A model generated the notes under the pieces. It saw only the letters and a list, made by a program, of their open reading frames with translations. It ran no database searches and was not told where the DNA came from. Of a stretch of DNA of 64,000 nucleotides, positions 19,660-24,862 are shown one piece after another. Location of the stretch: positions 1-64,000 of the forward strand of contig JAFXUJ010000014.1 in assembly GCA_017525025.1 (NCBI GenBank). Reading direction: 5' to 3'. Positions within the stretch are counted from its first letter, which is position 1. Each line of letters opens with the position of its first letter. Source of the DNA: Elusimicrobiaceae bacterium (GTDB lineage: Bacteria > Elusimicrobiota > Elusimicrobia > Elusimicrobiales > Elusimicrobiaceae). Made by a program: the position numbers and the translations under genes.

Positions 19660-20766
19660 TTATAATTCTTTTTGGTATACCCGGTAGCGCTTATAGGGGT
19701 GGCAACCGCACTCTTCTATCCCGCGGATCATACCCGCGTTATCTTCCAATACCCAAGAAAGTTCGGCCGCGTCCCACACGGCTACTCCGTGGGTAACGAT
19801 GTGCTTAATCAAGATCAAATCCAAACCGCGTTTTCTAAACTCCGGCAATACCCCCAACATAATAAGCCGGGCGTCTTTAATATGTTTCCAAGCCCACAAA
19901 GCTTTCAACACGCGCCACGGATTCTTGAGTGATCCGTTCAAAATTTTAAGCACATGATTCATGTTAGGTATGCAAATATAAAAGCCCGCCGGCTTGCCAT
20001 TTTCTTCTATGACACAGGTTCCTTCCAAGCGTAAAATAGGTTTAAGCTCTTTAACAATATCCATCATGTCTTGGCGTGTGAGCGGCACAAAGCCCCAGTT
20101 CTCCGCCCATGCTTCATTATAAATGCGGCGGATTGTTTCGGCTTCTTCGTCAATTTTATGTAAATTAAGACGCCTTAGCGTAATCCCTTTGGCGCGTTCA
20201 CACCGCGCACATACTTTTAAAAACCGCTCGGAAAATTTATCATCCCGGGTGCGGTAAAACGCCAGCAAATCCTTCACCTTGGCAAAGCCGGCTTTCTCTA
20301 TTAAATCTGCATAATAAGGAAAATTGTACGGCATCATGATAGACGGCAGAGAATCAAAGCCGTCCACCAGCAAACCATACACGTGGTTACTGGACGGATT
20401 GGCCGGGCCGCGCATAGCCGTGGCCCCTTGTTCCTTAAGCCATTTTTCGGCTGCCGCAAACAAAGCCGCTGATACTTTTTCATCTTCAATACAATCAAAA
20501 AACCCAAAAAAGCCGATTTCTTCTTGGTGATATTCGTTATGGGCTGTATTCACAAGGGCCATAATGCGTCCAACGGGTTTCTCCCCCTCGTACGCCAGGA
20601 ACAAAGCCCGGGAAGCCTGTTGCCAAAACGGATTATGATGATCTAACAAATGGCGCGTATCGGCTTTTAATTCCCCTACCCAATACGGATCATTTTTATA
20701 TAAAGTAAAAGGGAAATCGATAAACTCATTTATTTCTTGCGGCGTATGAATTTGTTTTACTTGCAT
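19660..20766 (-). CDS. GNAT-type N-acyltransferase, candidate bacterial ceramide synthase
   Basis: 368 residues from the ATG at 20766, which has AGGAG 5 nt upstream. The sequence has two GNAT-like halves; the second ends with LGVLPEFRKRGLDLILI, a GNAT acyl-CoA-binding loop. The first half contains ANPSSNHVYGLLVDGF, typical of the large family of about 375-residue acyltransferases found beside alpha-oxoamine synthases. Its immediate neighbour upstream encodes a serine-palmitoyltransferase-like enzyme; in Caulobacter the ceramide synthase bCerS is, to my knowledge, of this superfamily and linked to spt. Acylation of a sphingoid base is therefore inferred, not shown. A terminator hairpin separates the two genes. 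Confidence 0.75.
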   Translation of the reverse strand: MQVKQIHTPQEINEFIDFPFTLYKNDPYWVGELKADTRHLLDHHNPFWQQASRALFLAYEGEKPVGRIMALVNTAHNEYHQEEIGFFGFFDCIEDEKVSAALFAAAEKWLKEQGATAMRGPANPSSNHVYGLLVDGFDSLPSIMMPYNFPYYADLIEKAGFAKVKDLLAFYRTRDDKFSERFLKVCARCERAKGITLRRLNLHKIDEEAETIRRIYNEAWAENWGFVPLTRQDMMDIVKELKPILRLEGTCVIEENGKPAGFYICIPNMNHVLKILNGSLKNPWRVLKALWAWKHIKDARLIMLGVLPEFRKRGLDLILIKHIVTHGVAVWDAAELSWVLEDNAGMIRGIEECGCHPYKRYRVYQKEL

Positions 20767-20777
20767 ACAAACTCCTA

Positions 20778-20805
20778 AAATAAAACCCCGCACCTGGCGG
20801 GGTTT
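20778..20805 (-). terminator. Terminator/attenuator between SPT-like and GNAT genes
   Basis: AAACCCCGC-caggt-GCGGGGTTT followed on the minus strand by TATTTTAG. It ends just before the GNAT gene RBS, so the downstream gene would depend on read-through or be expressed at reduced level. Confidence 0.75.
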
Positions 20806-20819
20806 ACACCTATTACAAA

Positions 20820-22010
20820 TTATTTAATCACACCGACGGCTCGCCCGGCTTGGGCAAAGGCGTCTATGATTTTTTGAACGTGTTCATCCGTATGAGTAGC
20901 CATCAGCGTAATGCGTATTAACGCACGGCCGGGCGGCACCGCGGGGCTGACAACCGGGTTGGCAAAAATGCCGATTTCGTGCAAGGCCCGCCACATCTTA
21001 AAGCAATTTTCATTGCTGCCTACGTGGACCGGCAAAATAGGTGTGGTGCTGGTGCCCAAATCATACCCTAAATCTTCCAAGCCCTTTTTCAACTTGGCAG
21101 TTAAGCGGAAAAGATTATCCCGGCGGGAAGTATCGTTTTCAATCAGTTCAAGCGCTTTGGTAATGGACGCAATGCACGAGGGCGGCATAGAGGCCGAGAA
21201 AATTTGGCTGCGGGCATTGTGGCGCATGTAGTGAATAATATCGGCATCTCCCACCACAAATCCTCCCACCGTAGCAAACGTTTTGGAACAGGTCCCAACG
21301 ATCAAATCTACTTCCCCGTTTTCTAAACCGAAATGTTCGCACGTACCGCGGCCGGTTTTACCAATAATGCCCGTAGCATGGGCATCATCTACCATAATGC
21401 GCGCGCCGTATTTCTTGCCGATTTTGACAATGTCCGGTAACGGACAAATATCCCCCTCCATGCTAAACACACCGTCTACAATAATTAGTTTGCCTGCGTC
21501 GGCCGGGAGCTTGGCTAAAACGCGCTCCAAATCGGCCATGTCGTTATGTTTAAAGCGAACCATTTCCCCTTCGGACATTTTAATCCCGTCTAAAATACTG
21601 GCATGGTCTAACTTGTCCACGATGGCATAGTCGCCTTTTTTAACCAGACACGACACTACCCCCAAATTCATTTGGTACCCGGTAGCAAACAACAATCCGG
21701 CTTCTTTACGTTTAAACTTGGCTAATTTTTCTTCTAACGCATCGGCGATTTTCGTATTTCCGTTTAGCAAACGCGAACCGGCTACACCCGTACCGTATTT
21801 TTGCACCGCCTCTAAAGCAGCTTGTTTCATTTCCGGATCGTTGGCTAAACCTAGGTAGTTATTGGAGCCCGCCATGATGTATGTCTTGCCGCCCAATACC
21901 ACCTCCGGCCCTTGGGCAGATTCTATGGGTTGAAAATAACCATAGATTCCCATGCGCATGGCAATTTTGGCATCCTTATAATTTTTACATTTCTCAAAAA
22001 TATCAGCCAT
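20820..22010 (-). CDS. Alpha-oxoamine synthase, serine-palmitoyltransferase-like
   Basis: PLP enzyme that condenses an amino acid with an acyl thioester. 396 residues from ATG 22010 (GAGGA upstream). Motifs: DHAS with His136 stacking on PLP, VDDAHATG with Asp208 and His211, and the Schiff-base Lys243 in GTCSKTFATVGGF. Segments HNDMADLE, KLIIVDGVFSMEGDI and RHNARSQIFSAS, and the end segment PAVPPGRALIRITLMATHT, recall Bacteroides-type serine palmitoyltransferases more than glycine C-acetyltransferase (Kbl) or BioF. No bioA/bioD/tdh is nearby. Adjacent to a GNAT acyltransferase, it suggests sphingolipid synthesis. Kbl is the main alternative. Confidence 0.82.
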   Translation of the reverse strand: MADIFEKCKNYKDAKIAMRMGIYGYFQPIESAQGPEVVLGGKTYIMAGSNNYLGLANDPEMKQAALEAVQKYGTGVAGSRLLNGNTKIADALEEKLAKFKRKEAGLLFATGYQMNLGVVSCLVKKGDYAIVDKLDHASILDGIKMSEGEMVRFKHNDMADLERVLAKLPADAGKLIIVDGVFSMEGDICPLPDIVKIGKKYGARIMVDDAHATGIIGKTGRGTCEHFGLENGEVDLIVGTCSKTFATVGGFVVGDADIIHYMRHNARSQIFSASMPPSCIASITKALELIENDTSRRDNLFRLTAKLKKGLEDLGYDLGTSTTPILPVHVGSNENCFKMWRALHEIGIFANPVVSPAVPPGRALIRITLMATHTDEHVQKIIDAFAQAGRAVGVIK

Positions 22011-22049
22011 ATTTTCCTCACGAAATACACCTCTCACGGTACAGAGAGG

Positions 22050-22514
22050 CTATTTACTCACCTTTTTAATAATGTTAGTAGTGGAACGTCCTTTTAATAA
22101 GGCAAAACGTACCACTTTTTTAGCAAATTCCCTGCCTACAATTTCCGTCGGTTTATAGTCTCCGCCTTTTACAAGCACATCCGGGCGAATCAATTTAATT
22201 AAGTTATAAGGGGTATCTTCTTCAAAGATACAAACTGCCGATACACTTTCCAACGCGGCTAATACCAACGCCCGGTCCCTTTGCGAATTAACCGGACGGG
22301 AAGGCCCTTTTAACCGCTTGACGGAAGCATCGCTGTTAAGCCCTACTACCAGCAAATCTCCTTTACTGCGCGCAAACTCCAACACGCTTACGTGGCCGGC
22401 ATGTAAAATATCAAAACATCCGTTGGTAAATACCACTTTTTGGCCTTGGGCTCGTACATCCTCTATCCATTTTTTGAGTGCCCGCGGCCCTTTTATTTTA
22501 TCTTTCGCTTTCAT
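22050..22514 (-). CDS. D-glycero-beta-D-manno-heptose-1-phosphate adenylyltransferase (HldE C-terminal domain type)
   Basis: Activates heptose for lipopolysaccharide core. About 154 residues from ATG 22514. The nucleotidyltransferase motif [10 protein letters not shown] (HxGH) lies near residue 40; [24 protein letters not shown] and VKGGDY are characteristic of RfaE domain II. There is no fused kinase domain, so it is the separate-subunit form. The PfkB kinase at 60287-61198 is far away and not an obvious partner. It overlaps the end of accC by 17 nt. Confidence 0.92.
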
Positions 22515-23889
22515 GTTGTTTCTTTTCCAAGGCCACCATCCGCTCAATCAAGCCGGTATCGGTATTACCTTGTATAAAATCCGCATTATTCACAATTTTC
22601 CGGTGGAAAGGAATGGTCGTTTTGACACCTTCTATCACAAACTCATCCAAACAACGGCGACTGCGGGCCAGTAAATGTTCCCGATCCGGAGCCGTTACAA
22701 TAAGTTTAGCAATTAAACTGTCGTAATAACTGGGAATAGTATAACCGCTATACATATGGCTATCTACCCGCACGCCCAACCCACCCGCCGGGATCCACTC
22801 TTCGACGGTGCCGGGGCAAGGGGCAAAGTTATGCTCGCTGTCTTCGGCATTGATACGATGCTCTATCGCATGGCAATGGATAGCGGCTGCTTCTTTCTGG
22901 GTTAAATCTAACGCTTGGCCTTGGGCAATTTGGATCTGCATTTTTACCAAATCGCGCCCGCATACTTCTTCCGTTACCGGGTGTTCCACCTGTAAACGGG
23001 TATTCACTTCCATGAAATAAAATTCCCGGGTGGGAGCCATTAAAAATTCCACGGTACCTACTCCGTGATAATGAGCGGCCAGAATCAATTTACAAGCAGC
23101 TTCTTGCAATTTTTTGCGGGTAGCCCCGTCCACAAACGGAGAAGGTGATTCTTCCACCAATTTTTGATGGCGGCGTTGCAAGCTGCAATCGCGCTCGGTA
23201 AATGCGACTACGTTTCCGTAGTTATCCGCGGCCACTTGCACTTCTATATGACGCGGATTTAAGACAAGCTTTTCAAAATACATGCGCTCATCGCCGAAAT
23301 TGGCACGCGCCTCAGCTTGGGCCGTTTTCAACATGCGGTCTAAATCTTCTTCTTTCAGGCAAGCCCGCATGCCCTTTCCCCCTCCGCCCAAAGCGGCCTT
23401 AATCATGATGGGGAACCCAATTTGCCGGGCCACCGTCCGGTAATTTTTACCGACAACCCCGTTGGAACCGGGCGTAACCGGAACTCCGGCTTTTACAGCC
23501 AGCGCACGCGCCGTAGACTTAACCCCTAACATAGAAATAGAAGCTGCGTCCGGCCCGATAAACACAAGCCCGGCCTTAGCCACCGCGGCCGCAAAGTCGG
23601 CATTTTCCGATAAAAACCCATAACCCGGGTGAACAGCATCGGCCCCGGTGATTTTGGCAGCCGTTACAATGGCATCTATGTTTAGATAACTTTGGGAAGA
23701 TGATGCCGGCCCTATACAAACCGACTCATCCGCCATGCGCACGTGTAGGGAATTGCGGTCCGCCTCCGAATATACGGCCACGGAACGAATGCCCATTTCT
23801 TTGAGGGTACGAATGACGCGCAAAGCAATTTCGCCCCGGTTGGCAATAAGCACTTTTTGAAAAGAAACAGTGGATAAATGAGCGGACAT
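22498..23889 (-). CDS. accC: Biotin carboxylase (AccC)
   Basis: Carboxylates the biotin of a carrier protein using ATP and bicarbonate, as part of acetyl-CoA carboxylase or a related acyl-CoA carboxylase. 463 residues. N-terminal [14 protein letters not shown], the ATP-grasp glycine-rich loop GGGGKGMR, and the catalytic region [14 protein letters not shown] are all intact. The partner encoded directly upstream is an AccB-like protein that lacks the biotinyl-lysine, so the true carrier must be elsewhere or the complex is unusual. It overlaps the heptose nucleotidyltransferase gene by 17 nt. Confidence 0.96.
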
Positions 23890-23898
23890 ATAGCCAGG

Positions 23899-24273
23899 TT
23901 ACTCCTCAATAAAAAAGAGCGGCAAGCCAAACTCCACCGCCGCGCCTTCTTGGGCATTAATGACGCGCAATTTACCATCAACCGGGGCCGTAATTTTATG
24001 TTTTTGGGAAACCGTTTCCACCCATCCCATCGTGGTCCCTTGTTTAATGGTTTGTCCTTCGGTAAAAATTAAATTTTTGCCTTTTTCGGCCGCGTGGTAA
24101 ATCCCCACCGCCGGCGCACAAACAGCCGTCAGCGGGCAGGAAAAATTCGTAGGTTCGGGCAAGGCTTCTTGGGTTTTAATTTCAATAGAATCGCCGTTAT
24201 TCTCGTAGCAAAATTCGGCCAAATCGGTGGTTTTAAACCAAGCGGTTACTTCCTTAATAAGTTTGGTATCCAT
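23899..24273 (-). CDS. AccB-like biotin/lipoyl-domain protein lacking the biotinylation lysine
   Basis: 124 residues. The C-terminal half (about 48-124) has the biotinyl-domain fold pattern: CPLTAVCAPAVGIY, EGQTIKQGTTMGWVE, APVDGKLRVI, and AAVEFGLPLFFIEE, which aligns well with AccB. Where AccB has EAMKM, this protein reads ETVSQK: Ser89 stands at the biotin-lysine position and the nearest Lys are 91 and 93. The N-terminal helix resembles AccB. It may be a non-biotinylated regulatory homolog, comparable in concept to plant BADC proteins. It is directly upstream of accC (9 nt apart), with RBS GAGGA. Confidence 0.85.
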   Translation of the reverse strand: MDTKLIKEVTAWFKTTDLAEFCYENNGDSIEIKTQEALPEPTNFSCPLTAVCAPAVGIYHAAEKGKNLIFTEGQTIKQGTTMGWVETVSQKHKITAPVDGKLRVINAQEGAAVEFGLPLFFIEE

Positions 24274-24394: not shown

Positions 24395-24862
24395 ATGAAA
24401 AAAAATACATCCTTACTGATTAAGTTGTTTTTGTGGCTGGTGATTTGCCAAATCCCCAGTCTGTTGGGAGCGCCGTTTGTATATGCAAACATGAACTGGT
24501 ACAACCAACTGGTTAAACCTACGTTCACTCCGCCGGATGCATTATTCGGCATGGTATGGGCTGCGCTGTATGTGCTACTGGGGTTAAGTGCTTTTTTGGC
24601 CTTTCGTGAAAAATTTCACGCCCGTACGCTGGCGCTTTTCGCCGGGCAACTGGCGCTTAACATCTGTTGGACGCCTATTTTCTTCGGCGCGCACAGTTTG
24701 CCGGGGGCAATGCTTTTATTACTGGCTATGCTGGGGGAAATGGTAGGATTGCTGCGGGCATTTTGGAAAACAAACCGCGCAGCCGGCTGGCTGCTCGTGC
24801 CCTATACAGGTTGGTTGATTTTCGCCACCTATTTAAGTATCGGGATGTGGTGGCTTAATTAA
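24395..24862 (+). CDS. tspO: TspO/MBR family protein
   Basis: 155 residues, five hydrophobic helices. WYNQLVKPTFTPPD and the helix-loop MVWAALYVLLG, NICWTPIFFGAH and the final PYTGWLIFATYLS correspond to TspO (tryptophan-rich sensory protein), which binds porphyrins and sterol-like ligands in the inner or outer membrane. The function in an anaerobe is unclear. The ATG at 24395 follows the -10 box by 6 nt. It is a single transcription unit, convergent with the DUF948-like gene. Confidence 0.94.
   Translation: MKKNTSLLIKLFLWLVICQIPSLLGAPFVYANMNWYNQLVKPTFTPPDALFGMVWAALYVLLGLSAFLAFREKFHARTLALFAGQLALNICWTPIFFGAHSLPGAMLLLLAMLGEMVGLLRAFWKTNRAAGWLLVPYTGWLIFATYLSIGMWWLN

What the first reader, a model, noticed from the sequence alone, without database searches (positions are those of the whole stretch)
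23899..24273. AccB-like protein beside accC lacks the biotinylation lysine (ETVSQK in place of EAMKM)
Alignment by eye around the hammerhead turn gives Ser89 at the biotinyl-Lys position; flanking residues align without gaps. The gene is coupled to an intact accC. Plant BADC proteins are precedents for biotin-domain homologs that lack the lysine and regulate acetyl-CoA carboxylase. Inference: either a regulatory or structural subunit, or a degenerate carrier with biotin moved to Lys91 or Lys93.
Basis: partly seen in the sequence, partly recalled or inferred. Interest (0 to 1): 0.62.

Follow-up and report, generated by a model that had tools for sequence, protein, structure and literature searches.

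The report
Bacterial biotin-carrier paralogue without its lysine
A bacterial phylum keeps a second copy of the biotin-carrier protein of fatty-acid synthesis next to the gene for its partner enzyme, and in many lineages, including this one, that copy has lost the lysine that holds biotin while a separate normal copy keeps it, which looks like a bacterial counterpart of a helper subunit known from plant chloroplasts.

Summary
The 124-aa protein at 24273..23899 (minus strand) is an AccB/BCCP homologue with Ser89 at the biotinyl-lysine position; accC starts 9 nt after its stop. It is not a decayed gene. The same genome has a normal AccB (EAMKV) elsewhere, one accC and two BirA-like ligases. Sampling across the phylum (Elusimicrobiota) shows two anciently separate AccBs. 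The unlinked AccB kept the lysine motif in all 39 aligned. The accC-linked "AccB2" has a non-lysine residue in all 30 genus members read, has lost the motif throughout a large clade, and shows scattered AMK-to-AMR/AMQ changes elsewhere; on an AccC tree the motif changes state at least 8 times. AccB2 is under purifying selection (median dN/dS 0.115), strongest in its N-terminal segment. AlphaFold places Ser89 in the hairpin turn and Lys91/Lys93 in the next strand. Best reading: a non-biotinylated structural or regulatory subunit that docks on AccC, working like plant BADC but probably of separate bacterial origin. Binding and function are inferred, not shown. Other phyla were not tested: both scans meant for that failed through my typing errors. 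Lys-bearing AccB2 of family f2 could still be biotinylated.

The parts
23899..24273 (-). accB2: lysine-less AccB/BCCP paralogue, 124 aa
   Evidence: ORF; families; orthologue in 60 of 61 genomes searched (own included)
24175..24273 (-). N-terminal segment (residues 1-33), the most constrained part; proposed AccC-docking part by analogy with E. coli AccB
   Evidence: model helix 3-14 and strands 20-25, 28-33 at moderate confidence (block pLDDT about 71-73); lowest pN/pS 0.168; binding is inferred
23902..24126 (-). BCCP-type barrel (residues 50-124)
   Evidence: PF00364 residues 51-121; 1bdo match
23992..24021 (-). hairpin that carries biotinyl-Lys in BCCPs, here VETVSQKHKI (residues 85-94)
   Evidence: ungapped alignment; turn 87-90 in model
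24007..24009 (-). Ser89 codon (TCC) at the biotinyl-Lys position
   Evidence: sequence; TCC or TCT in 27 of 30 genus members
22498..23889 (-). accC: biotin carboxylase, 463 aa, the only accC over cut-off in the genome; starts 9 nt after the accB2 stop
   Evidence: TIGR00514 633.9 bits over cut-off 626.5; single copy; spacing

Best explanation
AccB2 is a non-biotinylated paralogue of the biotin carboxyl carrier that is made together with AccC and works as a structural or regulatory subunit of the biotin carboxylase part of the acyl-CoA carboxylase. It probably docks on AccC through the same surfaces as AccB, while the unlinked canonical AccB, biotinylated by BirA, carries the carboxyl group to a carboxyltransferase. 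Shown here: the lysine is absent, a normal AccB exists, AccB2 is conserved, constrained and accC-linked, and the motif has changed repeatedly. Inferred: binding to AccC and/or AccB, and whether the effect is assembly ('glue'), inhibition by competition, or both. Assembly is slightly favoured because the gene stays beside accC in most genomes read.
For: Canonical AccB with EAMKV elsewhere and one accC, two BirA-like genes, so biotin carriage is covered. AccB2 in 60 of 61 genomes and in all 43 of the more complete ones. Purifying selection: median dN/dS 0.115, pN/pS lowest in the N-terminal segment (0.168) and highest at the tip (0.305). accC on the same strand within the fetched stretch in 53 of 61 AccB2 loci and 19 of 19 more. 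AccB and AccB2 fall on two sides of one branch, SH-aLRT 99, motif columns removed. Lys motif in 39/39 canonical AccB against scattered AMR/AMQ and a motif-decayed clade in AccB2. At least 8 changes on an AccC tree, 6 forced by well-supported branches. Motif-decayed AccB2s are shorter: median 125 aa against 149 (AMx AccB2) and 161 (AccB), as expected if no swinging linker is needed. Plant BADC proteins lack the motif and assemble or inhibit the plastid enzyme (PMC11926652; PMC7712654).
Against: No binding or biochemical data, and no complex was modelled. The N-terminal segment is modelled with moderate confidence. In family f2, 15 of 20 AccB2s have a lysine at the tip in a changed context (VEVGKDHK), which might still be biotinylated. 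Most outer families keep the AMK motif, so biotin carriage by AccB2 may be ancestral and still in use there.
Confidence: 0.65

Rival explanations
1. AccB2 is still a carrier, with biotin moved to a nearby lysine such as Lys91 or Lys93.
For: Several lysines follow the turn in this sequence.
Against: No lysine position near the tip is conserved in the genus (e.g. L015 SAKHK, L029 SKTYP); Lys91 and Lys93 lie in the strand after the turn; a normal AccB is available.
Confidence: 0.03
2. AccB2 is a dying duplicate with no function.
For: The motif is degraded and the hairpin tip is the least constrained part.
Against: One intact full-length copy in nearly every genome of the order, low dN/dS, kept beside accC.
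Confidence: 0.04
3. AccB2 no longer works in the enzyme and acts elsewhere, for example as a regulator of accC expression or an adaptor for another protein; its place beside accC is inherited.
For: In families f2 and f7 a 420-600 aa zinc-ribbon protein gene lies between accB2 and accC; E. coli AccB regulates its own operon (own knowledge, not tested here).
Against: In the window's genus accB2 directly precedes accC; the BCCP fold and the N-terminal segment are retained.
Confidence: 0.18
4. AccB2 is a working biotin carrier in most of the phylum, perhaps for a second carboxylase sharing AccC, and only some lineages such as this genus turned it into a non-carrier. This differs from the best explanation in the role of the lysine-bearing AccB2s, not in the reading of the window's own protein.
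For: AMK is kept in 36 of 43 outer AccB2s read.
Against: Seven scattered AMR/AMQ changes among those lineages suggest that the lysine is dispensable there too, while canonical AccB never changed in 39.
Confidence: 0.1

Closest known systems
Plant BADC (biotin attachment domain-containing) proteins of the plastid heteromeric acetyl-CoA carboxylase
   Same: BCCP homologue without the biotinylation motif; coexists with a normal BCCP; acts on the biotin carboxylase-BCCP part (PMC11926652).
   Different: Bacterial and encoded beside accC; groups with the phylum's own lysine-bearing AccB2, which argues for separate origin, but plant sequences could not be placed in a tree here; binding not shown.
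Canonical bacterial AccB (BCCP), e.g. E. coli AccB
   Same: N-terminal segment, barrel fold (1bdo, 1.4 A) and accC linkage.
   Different: Lacks the biotinyl-Lys and the rest of the MKM motif; short linker; a separate canonical AccB exists in the same genome.
Non-catalytic 'glue' subunits (epsilon, AccE) of actinobacterial acyl-CoA carboxylases
   Same: Bacterial precedent for a non-catalytic assembly subunit (cited in PMC11926652).
   Different: Not known to be BCCP homologues (own knowledge); no sequence relation tested or claimed.

Membership tests
BCCP / AccB (TIGR00531, PF00364) | BCCP-type barrel domain with hammerhead hairpin | tested here: met
BCCP / AccB (TIGR00531, PF00364) | Biotinyl-lysine in an (E)AMKM-like motif | tested here: not met
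   Ser89; 0 of 30 genus members have Lys
BCCP / AccB (TIGR00531, PF00364) | Score over the curated BCCP equivalog cut-off (115.2 bits) | tested here: not met
   43.4 bits; the genome's canonical AccB also falls short, 98.9 bits, so this criterion is weak here
BADC | BCCP homologue lacking the biotinylation motif, coexisting with a normal BCCP | tested here: met
BADC | Shares ancestry with plant BADC to the exclusion of bacterial BCCPs | not tested
   no plant sequences in the collections used; AccB2 groups with the phylum's lysine-bearing AccB2
BADC | Binds biotin carboxylase and BCCP and alters assembly or activity | not testable with these tools
   needs co-purification and enzyme assays
Lipoyl domain / GcvH | Lipoyl-lysine at the hairpin tip | tested here: not met
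   Ser89 at the tip; GCV_H match below cut-off

The most novel reading that the evidence does not exclude
Bacteria of the phylum Elusimicrobiota evolved, independently of plants and several times over, a non-biotinylated BCCP paralogue as a dedicated accC-coupled subunit of acyl-CoA carboxylase, and even the lysine-bearing AccB2s act mainly as structural or regulatory subunits.
Probability: 0.4. Interest if true: 0.75.

Novelty: new variant of a known kind. Interest (0 to 1): 0.62.

Why it matters
BADC proteins have been described as unique to the plant enzyme (PMC11926652), and whether they are glue or inhibitor is disputed. A bacterial case with repeated changes at the lysine, set beside lysine-bearing orthologues in the same phylum, gives natural before/after pairs in which the role of a non-biotinylated carrier subunit can be tested in a simple system.

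Tried and rejected
Pattern scan of 194 genomes in the phylum of a cyanobacterial record: one N too many (length 97 instead of 96), so zero hits mean nothing. Hence nothing is claimed about other phyla. Biotin on Lys91/93 rejected. Pseudogene rejected. A carboxyltransferase gene between accB2 and accC in family f2 was suspected from the gap size and rejected: the gene is a zinc-ribbon protein. Literature searches found no report of an Elusimicrobiota AccB2; most subscription papers are not held.

Full report
What is there. The minus-strand ORF 24273..23899 encodes 124 aa. It matches BCCP models (TIGR00531 4.8e-11, PF00364 6e-8). Alignment to the 1.3S biotinyl subunit is gap-free through the hairpin and puts Ser89 on the biotinyl-lysine. 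The accC ATG follows 9 nt after the stop; a GAGGAG lies inside the last accB2 codons, 12 nt before that ATG, so the two genes are probably co-expressed (inference).

Structure. An AlphaFold2 model from 21 orthologues (mean pLDDT 84; barrel blocks mostly above 90, N-terminal segment about 71-73) has strands 81-86 and 91-95 around a turn at 87-90 that holds Ser89. The best PDB match is 1bdo, the E. coli BCCP biotinyl domain, 1.4 A over 76 columns; 4hr7 (the AccB-AccC complex entry) is third. Lys91 and Lys93 are in the strand, not at the tip.

The genome. G000 (1.55 Mb, 99% complete) holds a second AccB, P0002, 168 aa with IEAMKVFNE, at C7:277891-278394, away from accC; a single accC over cut-off; two BirA-like ligases; and an OadA-like protein with EAMKM. 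No accD over cut-off was found; the only hit is a 534-aa MmdA/PccB-type carboxyltransferase. This fits a published table in which the one Elusimicrobia genome examined had the ACC biotin carboxylase but no CT-alpha or CT-beta (PMC3199775).

Which organism. G081, in the same phylum by the tool's grouping, is one contig of 1,588,979 bp, exactly the published length of the Endomicrobium proavitum chromosome (PMC4505116). The phylum is therefore very probably Elusimicrobiota. G090 (1,643,562 bp, same family as the window) is probably Elusimicrobium minutum; that length is from memory and was not checked. Its AccB2 has alanine at the tip (VETSAKK).

Conservation. AccB2 orthologues, one full-length copy each, occur in 60 of 61 genomes (own included) and in all 43 of the more complete ones. 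Among 30 genus members the tip residue is S (27), G (2) or T (1); serine is always TCC or TCT, three base changes from a lysine codon. Positions 90, 91 and 93 vary. Median dN/dS is 0.115; pN/pS is 0.168 in the N-terminal segment, 0.282 in the barrel and 0.305 at the tip (simple counting method, saturated pairs left out).

Phylum history. Of 295 genomes 289 match the AccB2 profile at E <= 0.001 (this count can include canonical AccB). Forty-two representatives of 26 further groups or genera and 27 more genomes were examined besides 20 of family f2. Two AccB types are present nearly everywhere. Canonical AccB, unlinked to accC, has EAMKV[MF][NT]E-type motifs in all 39 aligned. AccB2 has accC on the same strand within the fetched stretch in 53 of 61 loci and 19 of 19 more; some stretches end before accC could be reached. 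A tree without the motif columns separates the two types by one branch (SH-aLRT 99; few columns, quick method).

Loss of the lysine. In AccB2 the outer families mostly have [ATC]MK, but AMR or TMR occurs in G062, G064, G069, G099, G106 and G157 and AMQ in G088, with four different arginine codons among the five checked. In a large clade (f1, f2, f7, f8, f10, f13, f14) and in f5 the motif is gone; the tip residue there is K in 21 of 44 and otherwise S, A, N, R, G, T, C or P. On a tree of AccC, which does not use the trait, the motif changes state at least 8 times, 6 forced by well-supported branches, against about 24 for shuffled labels. I read these as losses because canonical AccB and most outer AccB2s have the lysine; the tree itself is unrooted.

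Interpretation. A normal carrier is kept unchanged while an accC-coupled paralogue repeatedly loses the attachment site yet stays under purifying selection, most strongly in its N-terminal segment. The motif-decayed forms are also shorter (median 125 aa against 149 and 161). The simplest mechanism is a docking subunit that need not swing or carry biotin: an AccC-bound structural or regulatory subunit, like plant BADC in working, probably separate in origin. Whether it helps assembly or competes with AccB is open, as it is for BADC.

Limits. No other phyla were tested: the two scans meant for that were mis-typed. BADC sequences could not be compared. For family f2, biotin on the tip lysine is not excluded. 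No binding partner was tested.

Noticed in passing
window 19660-22547, minus strand: Downstream of accC on the same strand lie an rfaE domain II-type adenylyltransferase, a serine palmitoyltransferase-like enzyme (NF047600 511 bits, below cut-off 640) and a 377-aa GNAT protein; a possible sphingolipid-type gene set next to accC.
   Followed up: partly
L045 2621-4411, L055 529-2148, L126 2480-3745: In families f2 and f7 a 420-600 aa protein with an N-terminal double zinc ribbon sits between accB2 and accC; no other domain recognised.
   Followed up: partly
L194 1357-2961 (G000:C7): The only carboxyltransferase found is MmdA/PccB-type, downstream of a phosphopantetheinyl-transferase-like ORF; no canonical accD over cut-off.
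   Followed up: partly
L195 1486-2190 and L196 1483-2073: Two BirA-like biotin ligases in one small genome, one next to the OadA-like gene; single copies are said to be the rule (PMC3199775).
   Followed up: no
L124, L126, L127, L128 (family f7 AccB2): One extra residue at the hairpin tip (e.g. EKGKGAVAQV), changing the turn length.
   Followed up: no
window 24395-24862, plus strand: TspO/MBR family protein divergent from accB2.
   Followed up: no
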